A stretch of DNA of 27,261 bases from a virus, in the IMG/VR virus record IMGVR_UViG_3300006810_008931, positions 1 through 27,261 of that record; one strand, given 5' to 3'. Positions 2,443 to 20,187 of the stretch are shown in pieces. Below the pieces are notes generated by a model. That model had not been told where the DNA came from and did not search any database. It was given only the letters and a program-made list of their open reading frames with translations. Position 1 is the stretch's first letter, and every line of letters starts with the position of its first letter. Both the position numbers and the translations under genes were made by a program.

Positions 2443-3990
2443 ATGGCACGTCTCAGGCAACAAAATCCGCAGAACTACATCTCAAGCTCCAACATCAGTG
2501 CCGAGTTTGAAAATGTGGTTCGCTATATTAACGCAGCAGAGCTGGGTGATAAGACGATAGGCGAGCTTCTCGATCAGATCTTCGACACCAATGGTGAGTG
2601 GGATGGTCCTATTGAGATCAGGCTCGACAGCTCTGCTGGCTTGCAGTACCGCGTCGGCAACTACACTGGCGCAGAGGTTGGCTGGGAGACAATCACCACG
2701 ATTGAGAGCCTTCGCGGTCCTGCTGGCCGCGATGTTGGTGACATTGGGGCTCCGATTATTCACGCTCGTCAAGACACAACTGCGACTGCGGCGCAGACTG
2801 TTGTGTCCTATGCGCATGATTCTGATGATGAGCTGATCGTCTTCGTAGACGGCGTGTTGAAAGTTCCCGGCGCATCGAATGACTACACCAACAGTGCCGC
2901 TGCCGACACGGTTACGTTTACTTCCGCCTTCTCTGGCGGTGAGATTGTTACGATCTACAAAATCCGCGCCACGGCGATCACCGGGTTTACGCGCTCTGAT
3001 ACCGTAACTACCGCAAGCCAGACCGTGTTCCCCTTTGTACATGACACGACTGCTGTGCTGCAGGTTTACAAGAACGGCATCCTTCAGCGAGCTGGCGGAT
3101 CAAATGACTATGTCTCGAATGCTGAAACGGACACGGTTACGTTCACTTCTGCCGTTCCATCTGGCAACACGGTGTCGATCATTACCGTGGAGAACACCAC
3201 GACGAACGCGGTAACGGGTCTGATGCTGGAAGGCACATACACTGACACTGCCACTGGACTTATTCCGTACAGCGCTCTTGGGCTGGCGGACGGCGATGTG
3301 CCGCAAGCCAAGGTCAATGGTTTGGTTGCTCACATTGCCAATGCTGCGAAGATCACGATTTCGTCTAGCGCTCCTGTTGCCCCTGCCACTGGCGATCTCT
3401 GGCTGGACACGTCGCTGTCTCCGAACATCCTGAAATTTTACGACGGCACGCAATTCCTGCGGACCTCCCCTGAAAGTGGGCTGCCGACATTTACAACGTC
3501 AGATGCTGGCAAGGTCGTTAGCGTAAACGGGACGGGCACAGCGCTCGTTTATGCCGACATTGACCTGACATCTGTTGTGCCGGTCACACAGAAGGGTGCG
3601 GCCAATGGTGTCGCCACGCTTGATTCATCTGGTCGTCTTCCGGCTACGCAGCTTCCTTCTGCGGTTACGACGTTCAGCATTTACGACGCGCAGACCGGCA
3701 ACGTGGCCAATGGCGCTTTCACCATTCAACGCATCTTTAAGGAGCGGGTGCGGATCATAGGGATCAGCGTTATCTGTGCCTCTGGCACAGCCGATGTGCA
3801 GATTCAAATCAACGGAGTTTCAGTTGGCTCGACTTACGGAGTTAGCTCGGCTGGCACGGAAGTAACGCTGTCAACGCCGCAAGAAGTTGATGCGCTTTCG
3901 ACCTCCAAACGAATTGGTTATGTTGTGACCAATGAAGCATCCCTCGTGGATCTCGAAGTAACTCTTGCACTGGAGATTTTGAGTTCCTAA
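2443..3990 (+). CDS. Tail fibre protein with duplicated beta modules
   Basis: A 515-residue probable host-recognition fibre. The N-terminal part (about 1-90) would attach to the tail and is followed by a short collagen-like turn, RGPAGRD (91-97). Two related modules of about 70 residues then follow (about 107-176 and 183-250). Both carry a version of TASQTVxxxxHD, a VYKNG/VFVDG strand, SNDY, and DTVTFTSA. Later segments have the fibre-type sequence GVATLDSSGRLPATQLP (about 385-402), and a C-terminal beta domain of about 110 residues with alternating hydrophobic residues likely forms the trimeric tip. AGGAAG at 2433-2438 precedes the ATG. No catalytic depolymerase motif is evident. Its place after the nozzle gene matches podoviral order. 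Confidence 0.75.
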   Translation: MARLRQQNPQNYISSSNISAEFENVVRYINAAELGDKTIGELLDQIFDTNGEWDGPIEIRLDSSAGLQYRVGNYTGAEVGWETITTIESLRGPAGRDVGDIGAPIIHARQDTTATAAQTVVSYAHDSDDELIVFVDGVLKVPGASNDYTNSAAADTVTFTSAFSGGEIVTIYKIRATAITGFTRSDTVTTASQTVFPFVHDTTAVLQVYKNGILQRAGGSNDYVSNAETDTVTFTSAVPSGNTVSIITVENTTTNAVTGLMLEGTYTDTATGLIPYSALGLADGDVPQAKVNGLVAHIANAAKITISSSAPVAPATGDLWLDTSLSPNILKFYDGTQFLRTSPESGLPTFTTSDAGKVVSVNGTGTALVYADIDLTSVVPVTQKGAANGVATLDSSGRLPATQLPSAVTTFSIYDAQTGNVANGAFTIQRIFKERVRIIGISVICASGTADVQIQINGVSVGSTYGVSSAGTEVTLSTPQEVDALSTSKRIGYVVTNEASLVDLEVTLALEILSS

Positions 3991-4409
3991 TGACAGTCAA
4001 CGCCATCACGAAGAACCAGAAAGCGATAGCCCTGATCTCTGGCATGAAGATTGGGCGCGGTCGTTTGCCGGAGCCGAACAGCTCCATTGGTTTTGAGAAG
4101 GATGGCAAGCTGGTGGGGGCTGTTGTCTTCAACAACTTCACGGGGCGGGACATTTGGGTTTCGGTATGGTCGGACGACAAATCCATCTGGACCCGTAAAA
4201 ACATGAAGATAATGTGCGACTACCCTTTCAACATTTGCAGGGTTAAGCGCATCTCTACAGTTGTGCGAAGTGGCAACAAGAAGGCCATCAAGCTCAACAA
4301 GCAGTTTGGTTTCGTCGAAGAGGGGGTCTCTCGCCGTCTGTTCGGGGATGATGAAGATGGAGATGGGGTCTTTTTCGGGCTCCTGAAAGAAGATTGCAGG
4401 TGGCTTTAA
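3990..4409 (+). CDS. GNAT-fold virion protein (T7 gp13-like)
   Basis: A 139-residue protein with a GNAT-like second half. Around residues 87-116 it has a strand (RISTVVRSGN), then a helix and the turn KLNKQFGFVEEG, matching the acetyl-CoA-binding motif A/B region of N-acetyltransferases, where a GN..A...N..GF..EG pattern is usual. T7 gene 13 lies at the equivalent position and also has a GNAT-like fold; its product is needed for assembly of the internal core. The start overlaps the fibre stop by one base (TAATG), and the product is almost the length of T7 gp13 (138). It could be a structural factor that has lost catalysis or an active acetyltransferase that modifies a virion or host protein. 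Confidence 0.7.
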   Translation: MTVNAITKNQKAIALISGMKIGRGRLPEPNSSIGFEKDGKLVGAVVFNNFTGRDIWVSVWSDDKSIWTRKNMKIMCDYPFNICRVKRISTVVRSGNKKAIKLNKQFGFVEEGVSRRLFGDDEDGDGVFFGLLKEDCRWL

Positions 4410-8060: not shown

Positions 8061-10265
8061 ATGTTTCAGGGGTACATTGCGCAGGGGGCAACTCAGCAAG
8101 CCGAAGCCAATGAGCAGCAGCGCCGCGATCTCGCGGATCAGCTCGCTCTATATGCACGTCAAAACCCAACCGCTACGCGGGACGAGCTGCGCAATTATGC
8201 AGACAGCCTGACCCGTCAAAATTATTTGATGCCCGGTAATGCGCAGGGCGCAGCCTTTGATGCGATGGTTCGTCGCGCAGACGAGGCAGCGCGTTCCGTC
8301 AATGCCGAAGCATTCCGTAATTTCATGGAAGCGAACCCCGATCTGAGTGCCGATGAGTACATGTCTTACGTTCAAAAAACGTATACTGATCCGCTGCGCA
8401 CACCCTTCAACGCAACACAGCAGGCAGTTCAGTCATTCGTTGATGATCGCACCGAGGCTGAACAGGAAGAGGAAAGAAATAGGCTTGTCGGCATTGATAC
8501 GTTTACTTCTTCAATACGTGACAATCTGTTGGGTCAAGCCCGAGATCTTTATAGAAAACATGGAAACGGTGCGGTTGTCGCCAGTCTGCTCAATTTGCCT
8601 GAACACTATGCGGGCAATCAGATGGCTCAAAACGAACTGGAGCTTTTAAAACGCAATCTAACTGATGGTCAATATGACGACCAGTTTGTTTCAGCATTGC
8701 GTACAGAATTTATGGACGAGCTTGAGTTTTCCATAAACAACGATAGCGAGTTTTCTGAATTCGTGAAAATTTTGCCGGATGGTTTGAGAAATAATCTAGA
8801 ACAAGTTCAATGGTTTGAGAGCACATTTAATCAAAAAAAGCTGGAACGTCAGAACGCTCTTGCCAATAATCAAGCACAACTTTTAAGTGGACTTGAAACC
8901 AACTTGGCCGATCTGGTCGACAGGGGCGCAACTCTTCAAGGCATACGCAACAGCACGGCTTACAGAAGAGTTGTAGAGGTAAAGGGGGAAGATTATGCGG
9001 AGGGTATTGTTGGGCCACTTTTTGGAATTTATACGTTGAGAAAGGATTCTCGATTCAAAGACTTTGCTTTAAAGGGTGTGCCCCTAGAGGATCTTAGACC
9101 TTCGTTAGGTGACCTTGTCGACGACCCACAAGTTCAAGCCGAATATGCCTTAATGGTGGAACGGGCGGCCACCGAGAATCTGCAAAGTAATGTCATCCCA
9201 CAGCTACCTACTCTTGCTAGGTTTATGACAGAGCAAGAGCTGTACGCTGTGTATCCGAATCTTAGAGAGGACCCCCTCCTTAAAGCTCAAGTTCAGGCTG
9301 CTTATGAAGGTGTTGAGTTAAATCTCGAAACCAGACAACAGGCTGCTTTTGAATTTATTCAGGGTTATGTACAAAACAATCCGAATATTTCCATGGCGAA
9401 TATGTTAAATAATCCCGCCGTTAAAGCCGCCCAAGCCTTGCTGACTGAGGAACAATTCCGCTCCGCGATGAATATACCCTCTCAACAAAATTTCCGTCAA
9501 ATCGCATCTGCTGCTACGACGGCAACGTTAGAAGAAATCAACGCTGCCATGGATGAACAAACAACAAACTTCCTTGCGGCTGCAGAACTCGGTCTTCCTG
9601 ACGGATTTATAGCTGCAGAGATCACCCTCTTGGGCAACAATTATTTCATTCCTCCAGAGTACCAAAGAGATATTATTGCTCGACTGAGTGGAGTTGGTAA
9701 AGACCCGATCAAGATCCAACGGGAAGTTGACAAAATTATATCGGACTTTGGGCTACTCACAAAAGAAAACTATAGATCCCAACAGATGAGGAGGCAGGCC
9801 CCCCCAAGTGATCAGATTCCATTTGACCAAGTTGATAATATAATTGAGGACATGGTACGAAAATCAAATACTATTTTGAACTCTTTGGACCCCATATTTG
9901 ATGATGCCCTCTCTGGAAGGGCTCTTGATGCTGCCACTATCCAGAACCACAAAACGAATCTTGAGATTCGACGGCGTGAAATACAGGCAGAAATGGACAA
10001 AGTAAGCAACCAACTCGGAAGGATTTATCAACAGTCCTATTACGACTTCGGTTCGTATAATGAGGATGATCGCAACCGATATGCAGAAGCGCTAGAAAGC
10101 ATGTATCTGGCTTACTCTGGAAAACTCAATGAAATTGACGAACTCCTAAACGAAGACGTCGGGCGTAACTTTGTTAAAATACCATCGCAGGATGTCCCAT
10201 CCACCTTCCGTGGAAGTACTGGTTTTGACTTTAACCTTTTTGGCGAAGACTATTTTCCAGACTAA
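8061..10265 (+). CDS. Internal virion protein candidate, helical, AT-rich gene (734 aa)
   Basis: Not recognised as a named family. The product is almost all alpha-helical, Gln/Asn/Asp-rich, without a clear transmembrane segment, and ends in an aromatic-acidic tail (GFDFNLFGEDYFPD). AGGAG at 8051-8055 lies five bases before the ATG, the clearest ribosome site in the structural block. It sits between the coiled-coil proteins and the giant gene, the slot of T7 gp15, which is 747 residues long; similar size and position suggest a gp15-like component of the ejection channel. From about 8470 to 10140 the DNA is visibly richer in A+T and uses codons such as AAT, TTA, ATA and AGA more than its neighbours, a sign of separate origin. 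Confidence 0.7.
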   Translation: MFQGYIAQGATQQAEANEQQRRDLADQLALYARQNPTATRDELRNYADSLTRQNYLMPGNAQGAAFDAMVRRADEAARSVNAEAFRNFMEANPDLSADEYMSYVQKTYTDPLRTPFNATQQAVQSFVDDRTEAEQEEERNRLVGIDTFTSSIRDNLLGQARDLYRKHGNGAVVASLLNLPEHYAGNQMAQNELELLKRNLTDGQYDDQFVSALRTEFMDELEFSINNDSEFSEFVKILPDGLRNNLEQVQWFESTFNQKKLERQNALANNQAQLLSGLETNLADLVDRGATLQGIRNSTAYRRVVEVKGEDYAEGIVGPLFGIYTLRKDSRFKDFALKGVPLEDLRPSLGDLVDDPQVQAEYALMVERAATENLQSNVIPQLPTLARFMTEQELYAVYPNLREDPLLKAQVQAAYEGVELNLETRQQAAFEFIQGYVQNNPNISMANMLNNPAVKAAQALLTEEQFRSAMNIPSQQNFRQIASAATTATLEEINAAMDEQTTNFLAAAELGLPDGFIAAEITLLGNNYFIPPEYQRDIIARLSGVGKDPIKIQREVDKIISDFGLLTKENYRSQQMRRQAPPSDQIPFDQVDNIIEDMVRKSNTILNSLDPIFDDALSGRALDAATIQNHKTNLEIRRREIQAEMDKVSNQLGRIYQQSYYDFGSYNEDDRNRYAEALESMYLAYSGKLNEIDELLNEDVGRNFVKIPSQDVPSTFRGSTGFDFNLFGEDYFPD

Positions 10266-10350: not shown

Positions 10351-13300
10351 GTGTCAGAATTTGACGATATCCTACGCGCCTTTCGAGACACCAGCCCTGA
10401 AGCTGTAGAGCGGCGTCGGCAACAATATTACGGGAGAGTTGGCCAACTGCAGACAGCCCCTCTGGCGCAGCTTGAGACCGACCCTTATCGGCTTTCCACA
10501 TCAACAGGCGCGGATGCGCTTAAAGACCCCAAGTTTCTGGCCGAGCTTAAGGACTATTTCCGCATAGCCCGAGGCAGGAGCTACGACAGCGACGACAAGC
10601 TAATCGAAGAGTTTTACCGCGAAATGACACGGGCGAACTTTAATTCGCTTGGGATTGCGGAAAGCTATAAGAAGATTAGCGGTGCTGACCAGCGCGTCAG
10701 GGATCTTTTTAATCGTATGCGGGAGGTCTACGATACCGTTCCTGCTTTTTATGAAGAGGGCGGACGCGGGCTTGCTGGGTTTACGCAGGTTGCCGTCAAC
10801 ACAGTCGTTGATCCAATCAACCTTATTGGTTTTGGTGTAGGTGGTGCTGCGGCAAAGGGTGCCATCGCCGCTGGCAAACCTGCAATACAGGCAGCAGCAC
10901 GAAGCGGTGCCACATCTCAGGCGCTAGGGGGTGCAGCCGTTGCTGGCGGATTTGATGCCGCAACACAAGCACGTGACATTGAATCCGGATACCAAGACCA
11001 GTTTAACTTTGGTCGTTTCGGAAGGGCTACGGGGCTAGGTGCTGGTCTGGGTGCCGCTCTTGGTTATGCGGGAGGCAGGGCCGCTGGGCGAAGCGCGCAG
11101 GGGCAGGCTGGTGAAATTCAGAAGCAGCGTTTGCTTGAGCTTAATTATTCCGAAGAGCAGGCTAATCAGTTGCTTGCCGCCGCCAGCGAAGATCAAATCA
11201 ACAACATACTGGCCAACAACCTGACGCCAGAAGCTTTGGAAAAACAGCAGCTTGAAACCTTTAAGCGTCGTCTTATTGAGGCTGGCAAAACTGATCAGGA
11301 AGCTGACGATATCATTGCTAATGCTCAGTCGCCAGACGAAATTGAGCGAGCGATTTCTGGTGGACCGGAGGCTGCTGAAAGCGCCCCCAACACCCCCCGC
11401 GTAGCCACAGAGGAAGAGTTTAATGCCCGTGTGGATCAGGAAAAACAAAACAATCCTGACCTCACAGAAGAAACAGCTCGCGAAGCTGCCCGCCGTGGTC
11501 TGGCGGGCGAGGGTTACAGTCGCGCCGTCATTGACGGGCAGGAAGAGTTTATTGGCTCCACCCGTACAACCAACACTCGCAAGCTGCAAATGCTGCAAGA
11601 CGAAGTCGACAGCATAGTCACGCAGCTAGACGAAGATATCTTGGTCCGTCGTCGCGCTGGTGAACCTGTAGAAGATTTGATCGACTTGCGCACAGAAGTT
11701 GAAAAACTTCGCGGACTGCCTGCTCGTCTTGACCAGTATGATGTTGAGATCCGCAAAAATCTGGAAAGCTCTGACCCGACCGTCGCTGCCAAAGGCGCAC
11801 GCCAGATTGCAGAAGTAAACGAGCTGCGCGATTTGCTGTCCCTGATCCGCGAAGTTGGCGTTCGTGATGCGTCTGAGATTTTACGCAGAGAGCGTCAGCT
11901 TGCCCAGCAACTTGAGCTGGAAGCATCGGCCCAGAAAAAGGTTGCTCGCGCTCAGGCCGATAAGCAGGCCAGAGAAGCTGCAGCAGCCGAAGCTGCACCC
12001 GCTGCTCCAGAAGGTGAAGCTGCTGCGGCTACTCCAGAGGCTGCCGCGCCTGAAGCGGCGGCAGCCCCAGAGCCAGAAGCTGCGCCAGCTCCTGAGCCAG
12101 AGCCTGACCTTACAAGCATACGGTTTACACAGAAGAACGTGTTTAACTATGCCGAGTCAAATGGCTTGGTTCCGGCTGACTTTGAGGGTGTCACCCAAAG
12201 CGGGGTGCGCGGTTACAGCAAGGCGGATGTGGATGGCATTATTGCTGCCAAGCGCGGTGCTGCCGAAGAAGCTGCGCCAGCAGTCGAAGACGTTGCTCCA
12301 GCCGCAGTTGCGGAGGGAGAAGTCCCGCCCGCCTCCATGCCTCGCATCGAGTGGTCATACCGCAGTGACGCCCAACGTGATTCTATTCAGAAGATCCTCG
12401 CTAAAGAAGGATTGGACGAGGCTGATCTGGATGACCTGATCCAAGCGGGTGACGTTGAAGTCAGCCCGAATGGCAAACTCACCAAGGAAGGCAATAAGTC
12501 TCTACGGCGCAAGCTTGAAGAGCGTGGCGTGGAGAAAGCGCCCGAGACTGGCTTCGACAAACAGCTTGAAGGGATTTCTGTCAAGGCTCTGCGCAGGCTG
12601 GCCGAACGCGGATTGCCGCAGGATCACCTTGAATATTTAATTGAGAGCGATCCCGAAAAGCTGCGGGCTATCATGCGTTTGGTGGATCCGAAGAATGGTG
12701 ACGCGATCACCGATTATATTCTGGGACAATCTGGATCTGGCGCAAACATTACAGCAAGAATGGCGTCTGACGCGTCTGGTATTCCCGGCCTTAAATTGAC
12801 TAAGACGGAGCGCAAGCTCGTTGTGGATCGCCGCAAAGCCTACGTGGCCAGCGGGATGGACGAGGCTGATGCAGCTCTTAAGGCAAATCGCGATGTGATC
12901 GCGATGCGTGCCGACAAAGCAGCAGGTAAGTTGGTTCAGCAAAGCGATGTAAGCGGAACGCTTTCTCGTCCTCCGATAGATGTAACTGCTGGTAGAAATA
13001 AATCGGGCGGCATACAGCGCCTGTTAAAGTATGCGTATGGCGGGATGCTCAACCCTGTTGGCCGCATTGACAACGCTTTGGGTGACGAGCTTTTGCAAAC
13101 TGCCGAAGCCATGCGCTCTTATGGCAATCGCCTTATTGAAGATCAGTACGATCTGAGTGCAGACGAAATCAAAAAGGTTAACGCAGCAGCCGAAGGCTAC
13201 ATTGCAGACGGAGCTACTCCGGAGCGGGCGCGAACTCTGGCGGAAGGAGAGGTGCGTCGAGCCCGTCCCCGCCAGCAAGTGCGTAACACCGCGCCAGTTC

Positions 13301-16300
13301 GTGGCTATGCAACTGACGCGCCGCTCGCTGATGGTTCGCCACGCGTAAAATATGACGAAGATGGCAACCCCGTTCTGACCAAGGATGGCCGCAAGGTCAT
13401 GATCCGTGAAAAGGCGAAAGCGGGCGAGCCGATCTTTTACGATCCAATTACAAACGCATTCTATCGCAATGAGCGAGCGATGCGTAAAGCTCGCAATGAG
13501 ACAGACACACTTCGTCCTGAACCATTTGCCCCAGACCAGTATGACGAATTGTTTCAAAACCTTGGGGACGATGCAGAGGCCGCACTTGATGCGCTTATTG
13601 GCTCGCTTAAACAAAACTCTCCTCCTTCTCGCCCTGCCGCTGCGCCTGATACTCGCATAGACTTGCCGCCTGTTCGTCGCACAGCAGATGGTGGTGAAGA
13701 AATCCTTGCTGTCCGCATGGGCGATGGGATCATTCGAGTTTTGAGCGAGGCTCAGATTTCAAGCAACAAAGGTGTGAGGGCCTTGATTGGTGACAACACG
13801 TCACTCTCCGAAATCGAGGTGGGATATGTTCGCGCTCCCGCAACCAGCGGCTCTTATCTTGCGAACAAGACATTTACAAAAGTCGATCCGGATTCACCCG
13901 ACCCATCTCAGTTTAAACCTGTCATCACGTCCACTAGCGCTAAAGGCTCAATCATCAACCCGGTGGCTGAAGATTTTGAGAGGCTCATCCCAGAGGCAGA
14001 GCGGATGCCCGGCAAATCACCCACCGATAAGGTGGGCGAACCAGCAAAAATTCTGCAGCGGCTAGTCAACAAAATAAATTCAGACGCTGATGTCACCAAG
14101 TTTGATATCGATGCAACCATTCAAAGCATCGAGTTCAACATCGGTTGGCCGCGAGGTGAAACAGCAACGGCCTCAGTTGCCGATTTTATGATCGAGCTAT
14201 TGGAGCTGCGTCGCAAGTATGTGCCGGAAGAAATCCGGGCACCTTCCGCAAAAGTTTCAGAAAATATCAAAGCCTTAAGAAGCAAGTCCCTCAACTACAC
14301 TGGCCGGGAAAAGGCACAGATCAAGAGAATTCTTAATTCGATTGCTCTTGCAACTGGCCGCCGTCCAAACATTGTCCCAACGGATTCGGCCCGAGAGTTT
14401 GTGCGTGGCGTAGATCCCCTGACTGGCCGAGATATAAACGAAATTCGGTTGCCAAATTATTTTAGAGGTTTTGGCACTGCTATGGATCAACCAAAGATGG
14501 CGCAGTTCCTGCACGAACTGGGTCACTGGTTGTATGCAAATGCCCTGTCCGTTGATGATCGCATTGCATTCTGGGCGGCAACAAAAAAATACCTTGGCGA
14601 TGCTGAACAGAACCTCCCCGCATTCTTTGGCGTAAACGAGCAAAAGCTACGTGAGCGTCTGCCCATCCCGGAAGACGAAGTTCGTCTTTCATTTGATGAT
14701 GTAAATCTGAATCAGGCCGACAACCCGCAAGAATTTTTTGCAAATCAATTTGCCATCTTTGGTATGCGCGAACGCGTAGACTCAATCTTCAGAACAGAAA
14801 AAATGTTTGATGAGCGGATGCGTGCGGCTCGCATGGGGCCAGACCATGAAGCATATCGCCCAATCATGGGTCGGCTCTTCCGTCTGGCCAAGTCCATATA
14901 CAACCGCTTCTTTGGCCAAGAGGCCATCGAAATAGACGAAGACTTGCTGCCGATCTTTGAGCGCATCCTGCCTGACACCGAAGAAGCAACTCGCGCAATG
15001 AACCTTAAGAATGCTCAAACGGCAACTGGTGCCCGCCTGTTGGAGCGAGGGTACTCCTTACGTGAGCACTCTAACAATCTTCATGATGCGATTGCCAATG
15101 ATGACTCATATGCAATCGTTGATGCAGCCGACAATCTGGCCCGCGAATTGTTTGGCATCGCTGGCCGTGCCAGCAATAGCAATAACCCATCTCCGCCACA
15201 TGATCCGTTCCGTGTTCTTCGTGAAGTTCATGGCAAAGCCCGCGATCTTTCTCGCAAACTGCATGAAGCTATTGGCATCAAGGATGAGCTGGAAGGCGGC
15301 TACTATGACGAAGACGGCCTGTATGTCAGCAACATCGACCCTGACGTGGTCGCCGACAATATCGTAAAAGCCATATCTGGAGCTGATGGCTCTTTGGACA
15401 GCGCTCGTGTTGTTGGCGAAGTAATCGATGAAATACGCAAGAAGTTCAACCAGTTAGACGATGAGTCCGTCAAGCTGACCAAGTCATTTGAGCTTGACTT
15501 TAAGCGGCCACGAACCACGACATCCAAGCGTTATGCTAAGGCCAGCCTTGCCAAGAAGCAGAAGAAGAAAGCAGAAAAGCGTAAGGTCAAGGCGGCTGCA
15601 GCCAGAGCTGCGAGAGAGGGCCAGCCCGAGCCATCCATGAACCCTGCCGAAGCAATGCTTCCTGTCCGCTCCATGACGGATGACCAGCTTGCTCAAGAGT
15701 TGGCGCAAGAGGGCGGAACCAACAGAGGTCGTATCATCGCCAATGAAATTGAGCGACGTGAACGTGCAGGTCCCGCAAGTGTTGGCATCGGCTCAAAGTC
15801 TGAGCGCGTGTCGCAAGCACTGGAAAATGAGGCTGCCCACTCTGCGGGCAATGGAGACACTGCAATTCCTGCTGCGCCTGAGCCAATTCGTCAGGCGCTT
15901 GAGTTGATATCAGCGAGAGATCCTGATCGTCGCAACACAGCGCAAACGCTTTTCTATCGCATCATGAATCTGCTGAATCCGGAAAGCGCATTGGACGGTT
16001 CTCCCTTCCCGACTGGCAGGACGCTTCGTCTTATTGCTGACGCAGATCCCTCTCCAGATTTTTCCGATGGCGTGCGGATACTTGATTTTAAAAACTCGAA
16101 AGAGTTTAACGCTGCTCGTCTTGGGGTTCGTCGCATGGCAACGAATTTGTCCAAGACTAAAACAGGGAAGCAGAAAGCGGCGGAGGCTGTCCTTCAGGAT
16201 CTGGCAGACTTGGTGTACCGGCTTGGCCTTTACGACACGAGCAGTCAGTTCACGAGAGAATCATTTACCAAAGCGCTCGTCTCACACCTTCGTGCGTCTG

Positions 16301-19300
16301 ACCGCTCAGTCCTCGAAGGTTTGTCTGATCCCAATTTTGTTGATGCAATTATCACTGGCGCTGACTCAATCGCATACCTGACAAATGGTCTGATTGCTCG
16401 CAGTGACATTGCGCAATCTGCACCGAACCTCGGGCGCTATGGTGATATGTTTGGTGGCACAAGCTCACCTGTTTCACATGTTACAAAAACCACAAAGGAG
16501 GCAACCACGGCACCGGGGGTTTACTCTGACCATCTGGCTGCTGAACTTGCAGAGCAAACTCTGCTTGGCTTGCCCGTCCCATTAAGACGAGCTGTTGCCA
16601 AGTTCACAGGCGCAAGCTCGCCAAAAATTTATTTTGTTCCGTGGCGTGGGGGCAATCCTAAAACTCCATCCAGCGAAAAAACGCCCGTGGGCAGCGGATT
16701 CAGAATCAGCCGCAATATCTCAGACATTGCTGAAATCAATGATCCCGACGTGTTTGCCAGCGCCGCAAGGGAACTCGGCAAGACTGACAATGAGATAGAA
16801 GAAATTCTTGAGGTGGTGCAACAAAGGCAGTCTCTTGTTGAGAAGGCTGAAAAGCGCAGAATGGATGCGCAAACCGCGACCCCCAAGAGGGCCAAGGGGC
16901 TGCTTAAATCTGCTGAAGATATTGATATGCAGATACAGGAGCTTGACGCCGATTATTTGTCTGAGCTTTTTGAAGAAGCGTATGGGCACAAGATGGGTGT
17001 TGTTCCATTTGTCTTGTCTGACTCTGCCAGAAAAAATTCAATTTCATTTGAAAGCGCAACCAAGATAGATGTCAACGAACTCATGCCCATCATATCCAGA
17101 ATGATTGGAAAGTTCGGGGTCTCAAGGGAACTTGTTTATGATGTGATGCAAGGAAGAGCGTCTCCCGGTTCTGACATAACTGGTGATGAAGCGCTGCAAA
17201 TTCTGGTGGATCTAATCTCGGGAGGGTTCGACAACAACGGATTCAGGAAGCTTAATTCCACAGATAGATACCAAGAGCTTCAACGAGTTCTCAAGGACAT
17301 GGGCTACGAGTCTGTGCGGTTTGAGAATTTTGACATTGTGTTTGACGCCAAGAACATCAAGCACTTGGAAGACTTCGCCCCAGACATAGAGCCAGACATC
17401 ACGGCCAAGATGACTGTTGGTGCCCGAGCTGTAAATCGGGAGCTTGTTTCTTCTGCACTTGAGGGACATCGCATCAATGGGGACACTGAGTCATATCTCC
17501 GCTTCCTACTGGCTGCGGATGGTACGCCCCAAGACGTAGTGTCCGCCATGAACAAGGCGATGAACGGGAAGGTCCCGAACGCCCGTGAGGTAGGCTCGTT
17601 CCGTCGTTTCTTCCAGAGCTTCCTTGCGCAGAACACCACGAACACAAGACGTGCCGGGATGCACTGGATTGCAGACTGGGTTGCCCCGTCTCGCGAAGCT
17701 GGTACTGGCCATTTTGAACGAATTGCTGGTCAAACAGGGCAAGTCCTGCAGCCCGTTTTGCGCTCACTGCGCAAGCTGCCGGAAGCAGGAGGCATCGCCG
17801 CATGGCGTCGCCGCGCATTGGACTACGGGTTCGTTCCCGAGGGCGTAAAAGAAACAACGCCCGGCCTTCGCCAGCCAAAAGCCTATAAGAAAATTGTGCG
17901 GGCATTGCGCCGTGATCCCGGATCTAAGCAAGAGCAAGCCCTTACGCCGGACGAGCTGGGTGTCTACAAAAGCATTCGCGCTATGTTTGGCGACATGCAC
18001 CGCAGGCTGGTAGAAGCTGGTGTGATGATTGGCAATGTCACACCCTACTTCCCGCAGGTGTGGTCGGTTGAAAAGATCAAGGCAAATCAAGATCAGTTCC
18101 TCGATGCCCTGTCTCGCTACCTTTTGGACGAAGCGGCAAGCAGCCCGCGCAGTAGTCCAATGTCTAAAGATGATTCAATGGTCATTGCCCGTCGCATCAT
18201 GGGCAACCTCATAGATGATGACGGTGTCTACACACCACCGCCTGTCAGCTCGCGCTCTCCGGTTGGTGACCACGTTGACTACCAGCGTCTCATTCGTCTT
18301 GATAAATTCCAGAATCACCTCGATGACGTTGGCCGTTTCTTGGAGGACGATCTTGAAGCGATCATTGCCAAGTACGTCGATAACGGAATGCGCAGAATTG
18401 ATTTCGCTGCCAAGTTTGGAGAGGGCAATCACGGCTTCCACGACTACATAAGCGTAATGGAAGATTCGGCTACTGGCTTACAGGCCGTGGCCCGCTTGCT
18501 TTCGTCTAACAAAATCGAGAAGAGAAATTTTACCGCACGCTCCACCACTCCCGGCGGCGAAACAGATGAGGTCGTCTTAGAACGTCTAACATCCATGCCG
18601 TTCAAGTCTCTGGAGGGCGCGTTGCCTGCGGCCAAAAAAGCTCTTGAGATGGCAGAGAAAGGAGACGCCGCATCTCTGCGCAATTTCCTTCTGGCTCTTG
18701 ACACCAACACGGCAGACTACGCACAGCGCACTTATGCCAAGCGAGTTGATGCAATCGTTGGTGGCCTTATGGACCGTCAGCGGATCGGCAACAAGCGGCC
18801 AGCAGCTCAAGACATCAAAGAGGCTACTGCGTTGATGCGCACCACAATGCGTAAGCCGGTTGATGCAGGCGGAACATTCTTCGAGATGTCTCATGGCGTC
18901 TCGAAATGGTCTAGAAACATTATGTCCTTGACCCTGCTCGGCTTCACAACCCTTACGTCCTTGGGTGACCCGGCGCTAGTTGCCATACGCAGTGGAAACC
19001 TGAAGGCTTTCTCTGAAGGGATTGGCAAGTGGATAACAGACCCAGAGTATCGTGAAATGATCAGGGGTTCTGGCGTCGCTATTGAACAGTTGGTTCACGA
19101 GCGCATGACTGGCCTTTACGGAACGGACGCATCCAGAACAACAACTGCCTTTTTCAACGCAACATTGCTGTCTCCATGGACGTCAATGCAACGTCAGTGG
19201 GCTGGCGCAGTTGCGCTGCAGTGGTTCCATGCGGAGATGAAGAAAGCTGCGAAAGCTTATGATCCGTCTAAACCTTTGCAGCAGCAAAGCGGTCAATACA

Positions 19301-20187
19301 AAAAGAGCTATCGCATCTTGCGCAGATATGGCGTCGAAGGTTTGCTCGACAGTCGTGAGACGACAGGCTTTGATCCTATGCTGCCCGACTTTGAGAAGAT
19401 GCCGCAGCTTCGAGATGGCATGATTAAGTTTGCCAACGAGACGATCTTCACGCCCAACCCGAACGACATTCCTCTTTGGGCTCAGACGCCGATTGGGGCG
19501 ATGGTTTTCCAACTCAAGTCTTTCCCGTTGATGATGCAGCGTCTGGCTGCAGACACACTCGTCAATAACTTGCGGGTTGATCCTGTCACACAGGGTGGAC
19601 GTCGGTTTAGCCCTCTATTGATGATGGCAACGCTTGGCCCGCTTGGTGGTGCTACTGCCTTGGGCGCAAAAGATTTTGTCCAGCAGCGCGGCGAAGACGA
19701 CAATACTTTCCGCCGCAGAAGTCTTAGCAAGATCCTTGGCCACGATGAAAACATTCACGGCCCGCTGGATGAGTTCATTGGCTGGTATGCAGAAGGGTTT
19801 GCCATGATGGGCGGACTTGGTCTGGTGGCCGAGTTGATGCACGACAGTGTTGAACAGCTTGATCAGGGCGGAGCTTATGGCTCCATGCGCTTCATGAGCA
19901 ACCTTGCTGGCCCGAGCTTCGGTGCCGTTTATGATGTCACTCAGGTGGGACAGGGTCTCGTAGACGCCGCAACCGAGGGACGCGAAAACGGAACTGGGGT
20001 TGAACGCGCTGGAGCAAGAGCCGTGGTAAGACGCGTCCCTGTTCTCGGCGGTGTTCGTTCCCTGCGAGAGTCCGCAGTAGATGTGATTGCTGGAGAGTCG
20101 ACCAGAGGCAAGGCCAACAATAGCTCATGGGACAGCCAGTGGGGCGGATGGGAAACCAATGAATGGGATAGTAAGTGGGGCGACTAG
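10351..20187 (+). CDS. Giant polyvalent virion protein with zincin protease and ART-like domains (3278 aa)
   Basis: One uninterrupted frame, 36% of the window; GTG start with GGAG eight bases upstream. Domains in order: helical N-terminus (1-135); Gly/Ala-rich hydrophobic stretch (137-250); Ala/Pro/Glu linker (530-588); peripheral-subunit-binding-like module (589-636); zincin metallopeptidase with HELGH (1388-1392) and probable third ligand E1461 in QEFFANQF; Lys/Ala-rich basic stretch (1718-1756); ART-like domain (about 2090-2345) from IYFVPWRGG to GYESVRF and DIVFDAKNIK; a long helical region with TPYFPQVWS; probable membrane-active segments (about 3088-3110 and 3141-3165); Trp-rich end (WDSQWGGWETNEWDSKWGD). 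The tail-proximal part resembles large podoviral internal proteins such as T7 gp16. It is likely packaged and ejected with the DNA, delivering enzymes to the host. No lytic transglycosylase motif was recognised. Substrates are unknown. Confidence 0.85.
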   Translation: MSEFDDILRAFRDTSPEAVERRRQQYYGRVGQLQTAPLAQLETDPYRLSTSTGADALKDPKFLAELKDYFRIARGRSYDSDDKLIEEFYREMTRANFNSLGIAESYKKISGADQRVRDLFNRMREVYDTVPAFYEEGGRGLAGFTQVAVNTVVDPINLIGFGVGGAAAKGAIAAGKPAIQAAARSGATSQALGGAAVAGGFDAATQARDIESGYQDQFNFGRFGRATGLGAGLGAALGYAGGRAAGRSAQGQAGEIQKQRLLELNYSEEQANQLLAAASEDQINNILANNLTPEALEKQQLETFKRRLIEAGKTDQEADDIIANAQSPDEIERAISGGPEAAESAPNTPRVATEEEFNARVDQEKQNNPDLTEETAREAARRGLAGEGYSRAVIDGQEEFIGSTRTTNTRKLQMLQDEVDSIVTQLDEDILVRRRAGEPVEDLIDLRTEVEKLRGLPARLDQYDVEIRKNLESSDPTVAAKGARQIAEVNELRDLLSLIREVGVRDASEILRRERQLAQQLELEASAQKKVARAQADKQAREAAAAEAAPAAPEGEAAAATPEAAAPEAAAAPEPEAAPAPEPEPDLTSIRFTQKNVFNYAESNGLVPADFEGVTQSGVRGYSKADVDGIIAAKRGAAEEAAPAVEDVAPAAVAEGEVPPASMPRIEWSYRSDAQRDSIQKILAKEGLDEADLDDLIQAGDVEVSPNGKLTKEGNKSLRRKLEERGVEKAPETGFDKQLEGISVKALRRLAERGLPQDHLEYLIESDPEKLRAIMRLVDPKNGDAITDYILGQSGSGANITARMASDASGIPGLKLTKTERKLVVDRRKAYVASGMDEADAALKANRDVIAMRADKAAGKLVQQSDVSGTLSRPPIDVTAGRNKSGGIQRLLKYAYGGMLNPVGRIDNALGDELLQTAEAMRSYGNRLIEDQYDLSADEIKKVNAAAEGYIADGATPERARTLAEGEVRRARPRQQVRNTAPVRGYATDAPLADGSPRVKYDEDGNPVLTKDGRKVMIREKAKAGEPIFYDPITNAFYRNERAMRKARNETDTLRPEPFAPDQYDELFQNLGDDAEAALDALIGSLKQNSPPSRPAAAPDTRIDLPPVRRTADGGEEILAVRMGDGIIRVLSEAQISSNKGVRALIGDNTSLSEIEVGYVRAPATSGSYLANKTFTKVDPDSPDPSQFKPVITSTSAKGSIINPVAEDFERLIPEAERMPGKSPTDKVGEPAKILQRLVNKINSDADVTKFDIDATIQSIEFNIGWPRGETATASVADFMIELLELRRKYVPEEIRAPSAKVSENIKALRSKSLNYTGREKAQIKRILNSIALATGRRPNIVPTDSAREFVRGVDPLTGRDINEIRLPNYFRGFGTAMDQPKMAQFLHELGHWLYANALSVDDRIAFWAATKKYLGDAEQNLPAFFGVNEQKLRERLPIPEDEVRLSFDDVNLNQADNPQEFFANQFAIFGMRERVDSIFRTEKMFDERMRAARMGPDHEAYRPIMGRLFRLAKSIYNRFFGQEAIEIDEDLLPIFERILPDTEEATRAMNLKNAQTATGARLLERGYSLREHSNNLHDAIANDDSYAIVDAADNLARELFGIAGRASNSNNPSPPHDPFRVLREVHGKARDLSRKLHEAIGIKDELEGGYYDEDGLYVSNIDPDVVADNIVKAISGADGSLDSARVVGEVIDEIRKKFNQLDDESVKLTKSFELDFKRPRTTTSKRYAKASLAKKQKKKAEKRKVKAAAARAAREGQPEPSMNPAEAMLPVRSMTDDQLAQELAQEGGTNRGRIIANEIERRERAGPASVGIGSKSERVSQALENEAAHSAGNGDTAIPAAPEPIRQALELISARDPDRRNTAQTLFYRIMNLLNPESALDGSPFPTGRTLRLIADADPSPDFSDGVRILDFKNSKEFNAARLGVRRMATNLSKTKTGKQKAAEAVLQDLADLVYRLGLYDTSSQFTRESFTKALVSHLRASDRSVLEGLSDPNFVDAIITGADSIAYLTNGLIARSDIAQSAPNLGRYGDMFGGTSSPVSHVTKTTKEATTAPGVYSDHLAAELAEQTLLGLPVPLRRAVAKFTGASSPKIYFVPWRGGNPKTPSSEKTPVGSGFRISRNISDIAEINDPDVFASAARELGKTDNEIEEILEVVQQRQSLVEKAEKRRMDAQTATPKRAKGLLKSAEDIDMQIQELDADYLSELFEEAYGHKMGVVPFVLSDSARKNSISFESATKIDVNELMPIISRMIGKFGVSRELVYDVMQGRASPGSDITGDEALQILVDLISGGFDNNGFRKLNSTDRYQELQRVLKDMGYESVRFENFDIVFDAKNIKHLEDFAPDIEPDITAKMTVGARAVNRELVSSALEGHRINGDTESYLRFLLAADGTPQDVVSAMNKAMNGKVPNAREVGSFRRFFQSFLAQNTTNTRRAGMHWIADWVAPSREAGTGHFERIAGQTGQVLQPVLRSLRKLPEAGGIAAWRRRALDYGFVPEGVKETTPGLRQPKAYKKIVRALRRDPGSKQEQALTPDELGVYKSIRAMFGDMHRRLVEAGVMIGNVTPYFPQVWSVEKIKANQDQFLDALSRYLLDEAASSPRSSPMSKDDSMVIARRIMGNLIDDDGVYTPPPVSSRSPVGDHVDYQRLIRLDKFQNHLDDVGRFLEDDLEAIIAKYVDNGMRRIDFAAKFGEGNHGFHDYISVMEDSATGLQAVARLLSSNKIEKRNFTARSTTPGGETDEVVLERLTSMPFKSLEGALPAAKKALEMAEKGDAASLRNFLLALDTNTADYAQRTYAKRVDAIVGGLMDRQRIGNKRPAAQDIKEATALMRTTMRKPVDAGGTFFEMSHGVSKWSRNIMSLTLLGFTTLTSLGDPALVAIRSGNLKAFSEGIGKWITDPEYREMIRGSGVAIEQLVHERMTGLYGTDASRTTTAFFNATLLSPWTSMQRQWAGAVALQWFHAEMKKAAKAYDPSKPLQQQSGQYKKSYRILRRYGVEGLLDSRETTGFDPMLPDFEKMPQLRDGMIKFANETIFTPNPNDIPLWAQTPIGAMVFQLKSFPLMMQRLAADTLVNNLRVDPVTQGGRRFSPLLMMATLGPLGGATALGAKDFVQQRGEDDNTFRRRSLSKILGHDENIHGPLDEFIGWYAEGFAMMGGLGLVAELMHDSVEQLDQGGAYGSMRFMSNLAGPSFGAVYDVTQVGQGLVDAATEGRENGTGVERAGARAVVRRVPVLGGVRSLRESAVDVIAGESTRGKANNSSWDSQWGGWETNEWDSKWGD

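What the first reader, a model, noticed from the sequence alone, without database searches (positions are those of the whole stretch)
16540..17410. ART-like domain in the giant protein
Residues about 2090-2345 begin IYFVPWRGG and end GYESVRF...DIVFDAKNIK, close to the pattern of the ADP-ribosyltransferase-like domain of phage polyvalent proteins (a YRG start, a GYDGV and VVFDPxxIK end). An injected ADP-ribosyltransferase could reprogramme host transcription or block defence. The DNA here also looks richer in A+T than the flanking parts of the gene, which would fit module acquisition.
Basis: partly seen in the sequence, partly recalled or inferred. Interest (0 to 1): 0.75.

Follow-up and report, generated by a model that had tools for sequence, protein, structure and literature searches.

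The report
Dead ADP-ribosyltransferase domain in phage protein
A giant protein of a marine bacterial virus carries a domain descended from ADP-ribosyltransferases, enzymes that chemically tag host proteins, but this virus and a whole branch of its relatives appear to have lost the catalytic residues while natural selection still keeps the domain.

Summary
Homology rests on profile-profile comparison (99.8%; reversed controls under 1%), a profile hit in the window protein, and models of the window domain and of an intact relative that both pick cyanophage A4 pre-ejectosome chain B. The enzyme reading is not supported. The family's H-Y-D triad, invariant in 24 of 24 intact relatives, reads V-R-E here. 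Of 59 non-redundant rows, window included, 28 keep H-Y-D, 6 keep the His with an altered site, and 25, the window's branch, lack the His, with one change on the tree. Most of these also lost the loop after the third residue. The neighbouring metalloprotease motif stays intact, and the domain is under purifying selection in 22 unsaturated pairs of the branch (omega 0.03-0.18). Best reading: a maintained pseudo-ART in a virion protein. The A+T dip does not show module acquisition.

The parts
10351..20187 (+). Giant virion/polyvalent-type protein, 3278 aa, GTG start
   Evidence: syntenic with CRP-810 gp35+gp34 and with the ~3050-3550 aa ORFs of relatives that reach full length
16606..17385 (+). 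Pseudo-ART domain, aa 2086-2345
   Evidence: syntenic and homologous to ART-PolyVal domains of relatives; model pLDDT 86.4, pTM 0.71
16627..16641 (+). Strand 1 of the model, aa 2093-2097; V2096 aligns with the invariant His of intact relatives
16690..16710 (+). Strand 2 of the model, aa 2114-2120; R2118 aligns with the invariant Tyr of intact relatives
17302..17313 (+). GYES, aa 2318-2321; E2320 aligns with the invariant Asp of intact relatives
17332..17361 (+). Last strand and tail DIVFDAKNIK, aa 2328-2337, counterpart of VVFxPxNVKH; the loop from E2320 to its Phe is 10 residues
14512..14526 (+). HELGH zinc-metallopeptidase motif, aa 1388-1392, intact
   Evidence: HExxHW present in every non-redundant relative that reaches this far
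17611..20184 (+). Conserved C-terminal domain (aa 2421-3278) used for the family searches and the trees

Best explanation
The stretch is a catalytically dead descendant (pseudoenzyme) of the ART-PolyVal domain, lying between an intact zincin metallopeptidase motif and a conserved C-terminal domain of a giant virion-type protein in a CRP-810-like marine phage. Shown: homology and conserved position; absence of the His, with the Tyr and Asp positions read as Arg and Glu in the window; absence of the same His in the whole branch; purifying selection on the domain in close pairs of that branch. Inferred: the ancestor was an active H-Y-D ADP-ribosyltransferase that was packaged and ejected; the window's branch gave up catalysis and kept the fold as a non-enzymatic module, most likely a structural or binding part of the ejected protein. 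In the window's own sub-branch a basic residue at the Tyr position goes with a retained Asp or Glu in 9 of 9 rows (for L012 the placement of the basic residue depends on the alignment); a salt bridge across the former nicotinamide pocket would explain this, but no coordinates were measured.
For: Position: CRP-810 gp35 matches PF18760 (E 7e-5, below the curated cut-off) in colinear place. 21 of 24 intact relatives match PF18760 at E up to 1, best 1e-11; 0 of 10 of the window's branch do. hhalign between the two groups 99.8%, E 1.9e-28; reversed controls 0.4% and 0.3%. H29, Y60 and D260 are invariant in 24 of 24 intact rows, matching the published H-Y-D. Window: V-R-E; 25 of 59 rows lack the His; one change on the tree (35 rows 100/100; 59 rows SH-aLRT 91). 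Loop after residue 3: 10-22 residues in 23 of 25 His-less rows, 22-38 in 28 H-Y-D rows. HExxHW kept in 17 of 17 His-less rows that reach it, plus 2 shorter rows. Omega of the domain 0.030-0.179 in the 22 His-less pairs that were not saturated. PF18760 is found in 7 of 7 records with an intact domain; of 10 His-less records, window included, 1 has a short match, in another gene (states checked), which Pfam does not confirm. Both models rank 9k3a_B first.
Against: No activity, binding or structure was measured. An acid is kept at the third position in the window's sub-branch, so some chemistry cannot be excluded. The window's model was built on an alignment that includes intact relatives, which may pull it towards their fold; no model from the His-less rows alone was made. 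Structural matches are moderate (Foldseek E 5.2e-3; VIA Z 9.8, rmsd 4.0 over 156 residues, next row 7.7). No close relative of the window was found that spans the domain, so omega was measured in other members of the branch. The direction (loss, not gain) rests on intact triads in other ART-PolyVal members and in the A4 protein, not on a rooted tree.
Confidence: 0.8

Rival explanations
1. An active ADP-ribosyltransferase with a re-invented active site: Arg in or near strand 1 or 2 and Glu2320 act as an R-x-E type site, as in the Alt/VIP2 group.
For: R2099 lies just after strand 1 and E2320 is where the catalytic acid sits; an acid is kept in 9 of 9 rows of the window's sub-branch.
Against: R2099 is not conserved in other rows of the branch, L098 (also V-R-E) included; strand 2 GSGFRIS has no S-T-S (that motif is recalled); the loop after residue 3 is cut to 10 residues.
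Confidence: 0.08
2. A decaying remnant with no function, still on its way out.
For: The domain diverges fast: 15-22% identity between the window domain and the other 33 rows against 46-52% for the C-terminal domain in the five nearest rows compared. The domain's omega is often somewhat higher than that of the C-terminal domain.
Against: Omega 0.030-0.179 in 22 unsaturated pairs of the branch; the fold is predicted with pLDDT 86; the reading frame is kept through the domain in the giant ORFs of the branch.
Confidence: 0.1
3. One reading: an ordinary injected ADP-ribosyltransferase.
For: Homology to ART-PolyVal and the C-terminal GYES and VFDAKNIK signature.
Against: Triad absent in the window and His absent in its whole branch; 0 of 10 rows of the branch match PF18760.
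Confidence: 0.02

Closest known systems
[quoted passage not shown] 2017, PMC5512222)
   Same: Same place in the protein as PF18760-matching relatives, profile-profile homology, linked zincin motif, GxD/E and VxFxxxxxK signature
   Different: H-Y-D triad reads V-R-E, loop after the third residue cut, no profile match
Roseobacter phage CRP-810 gp35/gp34 (OR671924) and the CRP-810-type phage family (PMC11288001)
   Same: Gene order and giant protein; 31.7% identity over 62% of the query
   Different: CRP-810 keeps YHGT, GIYL and GYDG and a second HExxH; it is annotated as two ORFs
Anabaena phage A-4L ORF27L = PDB 9k3a chain B, cyanophage A4 pre-ejectosome
   Same: Top structural match in the PDB for the window domain and for an intact relative
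   Different: 1717 aa; keeps YHGT (1425), GTYF and GVDA, so an apparent intact H-Y-D; no significant sequence match to the intact profile
Inactive PBECR domain of the phage Mu MuF protein (PMC5512222, passage)
   Same: Precedent for a dead effector domain kept in a phage protein of this class
   Different: Different fold and chemistry

Membership tests
ART-PolyVal (PF18760) | Profile match over the curated cut-off | tested here: not met
   No match for the window and 0 of 10 of its branch at E up to 1; 21 of 24 intact relatives match at E up to 1
ART-PolyVal (PF18760) | H (strand 1), Y (strand 2), D (strand 5) active site | tested here: not met
   V2096, R2118, E2320
ART-PolyVal (PF18760) | Common descent and fold | tested here: met
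   hhalign 99.8% with reversed controls under 1%; synteny; models share the top PDB match
ART-PolyVal (PF18760) | NAD-dependent ADP-ribosylation | not testable with these tools
   needs an assay
Polyvalent protein | Large multidomain phage protein with a zincin-like metallopeptidase | tested here: met
   3278 aa; HELGHW at aa 1388; motif only, the fold of that region was not modelled
Polyvalent protein | Packaged in the virion and delivered into the host | not testable with these tools
   inferred from gene position and from the match to a pre-ejectosome chain
Alt/VIP2 (R-S-E) ART | R-S-E active site | tested here: not met
   no S-T-S in strand 2 (GSGFRIS); R2099 not conserved; the R-S-E site is, its S-T-S form is recalled

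The most novel reading that the evidence does not exclude
A whole branch of marine phages converted an ejected ADP-ribosyltransferase into a non-catalytic module with a rebuilt pocket (basic residue at the Tyr position together with Asp/Glu in the window's sub-branch; Tyr/Phe mostly together with Thr/Ser in the sister sub-branch). It now binds a host target, NAD or an ADP-ribosylated ligand without modifying it, for instance as a shield or decoy against a host NAD- or ADP-ribose-based defence.
Probability: 0.15. Interest if true: 0.7.

Novelty: new variant of a known kind. Interest (0 to 1): 0.45.

Why it matters
ARTs are reported as the commonest protein-modifying domains in polyvalent proteins (PMC5512222, section 9), and they tend to be read as active weapons on resemblance alone. 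Here a motif that looks right at both ends belongs to a branch with a dead site that selection still maintains. If true, part of the predicted phage ART arsenal is structural or binding. This family has intact and dead versions at one locus and a cultured intact member (CRP-810), so the enzymatic and structural roles could be separated by experiment. The solved A4 pre-ejectosome chain with an apparent H-Y-D site places such a domain physically inside a virion.

Tried and rejected
Direct Pfam and PHROG scans of the window protein gave no ART. A search for relatives with the domain itself found none, so the conserved C-terminal domain was used instead. One scan of bacterial genomes found a single distant relative, L088, in a metagenome-assembled contig. 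Sequence search of solved structures with the intact profile gave calmodulin, coiled-coil and other chance matches, and none for the C-terminal domain. A single PF18760 match in a His-less phage (the L002 record, E 0.0019) covers 49 of 140 profile positions in the upstream gene; that protein shows no YHGT or GIYL, and Pfam does not confirm it: rejected as chance. The window's own upstream gene (8061-10265) shows no such motifs either. Known ARTs such as the PARP group are not among the listed matches of the window model; tankyrase appears weakly for the intact model (E about 0.5). Module acquisition was rejected on third-position G+C and synteny. Literature: searches listed no paper describing a dead ART-PolyVal; the library is partial.

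Limits: of 144 proteins taken up (window included), 26 were too short upstream to judge and 118 were collapsed to 59. L137 was left out because its match starts near the contig end; L088 and L006 were not used; loci that lie on contigs already held were dropped by hand. Omega was printed for 31 of 63 candidate pairs (the script stopped there), 9 of them saturated, and the pairs are not independent.

Papers: PMC5512222, passages and section 9 in full. PMC9503650, passages. PMC11288001, passages. PMC12810830, passages of its reference list. PMC12002296 (cyanophage A4 structure), not held; its title was seen only as a reference. PMC7955679, PMC10789625 and PMC7159879, search listing only.

Full report
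The giant ORF runs from 10351 to 20187 on the + strand (3278 aa). IYFVPWRGG starts at aa 2093 (nt 16627) and DIVFDAKNIK ends at aa 2337 (nt 17361). The stretch is A+T-rich (G+C 0.467 against 0.531 for the gene; 0.13% of windows of that length are as low), but third-position G+C is ordinary (48th percentile), so the dip follows amino-acid content and is no sign of recent import.

The window protein alone gives no ART match. The context does. The only phage record with a match is Roseobacter phage CRP-810, a member of a marine phage family described in 2024 (PMC11288001, passages). Gene order agrees: GNAT gene, large proteins, giant protein, then nuclease, AAA ATPase and primase-polymerase. CRP-810 gp35 carries a PF18760 (ART-PolyVal) match (E 7e-5, below the curated cut-off), and gp35 and gp34 align colinearly with the window protein on both sides of the domain.

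Scans of IMG/VR with the conserved C-terminal domain fetched 80 relatives, and further scans more. In a first set of 35 non-redundant proteins (window and CRP-810 included), 25 have the motifs YHGT (or YHAT), GxGxYL, G-x-D and VxFxPxxxKH or close forms, and 10, the window among them, lack the His. In the 24 intact rows used for alignment A3, H29, Y60 and D260 are invariant. These are the H, Y and D that Iyer et al. define for this family (PMC5512222, section 9). 21 of the 24 match PF18760 at E up to 1; 0 of 10 His-less rows do.

The two groups are homologous. Profile-profile comparison gives 99.8% and E 1.9e-28 over 277 columns; reversed controls give 0.4% and 0.3%; the window alone gives 96.7% and the reversed window 2.8%. 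A profile of the intact rows hits the window at aa 2151-2324 (15.3 bits; best of 200 shuffles 2.5). AlphaFold2 models of the window domain (pLDDT 86.4) and of the intact L038 domain (pLDDT 91.3) both rank PDB 9k3a chain B first (Foldseek E 5.2e-3 and 2.2e-4, probability 1.00; VIA Z 9.8 with rmsd 4.0 over 156 residues and Z 11.2 with rmsd 3.8 over 173). That chain is Anabaena phage A-4L ORF27L, its entry is titled as the cyanophage A4 pre-ejectosome, and the matched part contains YHGT, GSGTYF and GVDA, an apparent intact H-Y-D site. Its paper is not in the library. Caution: the window model was built with intact rows in its alignment, and Z values of this size can be reached by common helical arrangements.

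The window's site is not the family's. Its aligned residues are V2096, R2118 and E2320; the only His residues between aa 2086 and 2345 are at 2213 and 2338, far from strand 1. In the enlarged set of 59 non-redundant rows, 28 are H-Y-D, 6 keep the His with other changes, and 25 lack the His. The His-less rows need one change on the tree (careful tree of 35 rows, support 100/100; quick tree of 59 rows, SH-aLRT 91). The letters that replace the His vary (V, G, I, L, T, R, K, Q, S), as expected for a position without catalytic constraint. The loop after residue 3 is 10-22 residues in 23 of 25 His-less rows and 22-38 in the 28 H-Y-D rows; L015 and L018 (40 and 38) are the exceptions.

Two facts speak for loss of catalysis with retention of the domain. 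The zincin motif HExxHW upstream is present in all His-less rows that reach it (17 of 17, plus 2 shorter), in 21 of 21 H-Y-D rows and in 5 of 5 of the third group. And in close pairs inside the His-less branch the domain evolves under purifying selection: omega 0.030-0.179 in the 22 pairs that were not saturated, of 31 printed. The pairs are not independent and none includes the window. No replacement ART was found: PF18760 matches 7 of 7 records with an intact domain and, of 10 His-less records, only one, in another gene by a short stretch that Pfam does not confirm. Some of these records are fragments, the window (27 kb) included.

A pattern worth testing: in the window's sub-branch the Tyr position is Arg or Lys while Asp or Glu is kept (9 of 9 rows; for L012 the placement depends on the alignment); in the sister sub-branch Tyr or Phe is kept in 13 of 16 rows while Asp is Thr or Ser in 16 of 16 (exceptions at the Tyr position: L139 Ser, L184 and L190 Arg). 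A salt bridge filling the old pocket in the first case is an inference; no coordinates were measured, and shared ancestry alone could produce the pattern.

Mechanism, as committed: the giant protein is probably packaged and ejected (inferred from gene position and the pre-ejectosome match), its zincin may cut it into parts (proposed for polyvalent proteins in general, PMC5512222, abstract passage), and the pseudo-ART serves as a structural or binding part, not as an enzyme. Pseudoenzyme status: about 0.8. The exact role is open.

Noticed in passing
L104, L106, L107, L109, L110, L119 (ART region): A second branch keeps the strand-1 His but reads H-Y-E, H-H-E or H-H-Q at the triad (WHSSPNG ... 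GRGIH ... GYE), a different alteration of the active site.
   Followed up: partly
about 540-580 aa upstream of the C-terminal domain in relatives: A second HExxH motif is present in 13 of 27 H-Y-D rows that reach it, 0 of 6 of the altered-His group and 0 of 23 His-less rows; the window has only the HELGH at aa 1388.
   Followed up: partly
L007:12841-21382: CRP-810 splits the giant protein into gp35 and gp34 with overlapping frames (18863-18891), while the close relative L038 reads one frame across: a frameshift, biological or from sequencing, in CRP-810.
   Followed up: partly
L089:20116-25269 (Anabaena phage A-4L ORF27L, PDB 9k3a chain B): A solved pre-ejectosome protein carries YHGT, GTYF and GVDA, an apparent ART site that Pfam does not detect; whether its authors noted it is unknown to me.
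   Followed up: partly
window 8061-10265: The gene before the giant protein has clearly lower G+C (about 0.43-0.46 over much of it) than its neighbours and no family match.
   Followed up: no
window 3990-4409: GNAT-like acetyltransferase in the structural gene block (PHROG 4470, E 3.1e-31), also annotated in CRP-810 as gp40.
   Followed up: no
L006:1-5153: A fragment of a near-identical phage (29 C-terminal residues of the giant protein 100% identical) from another metagenome; it does not reach the domain.
   Followed up: no
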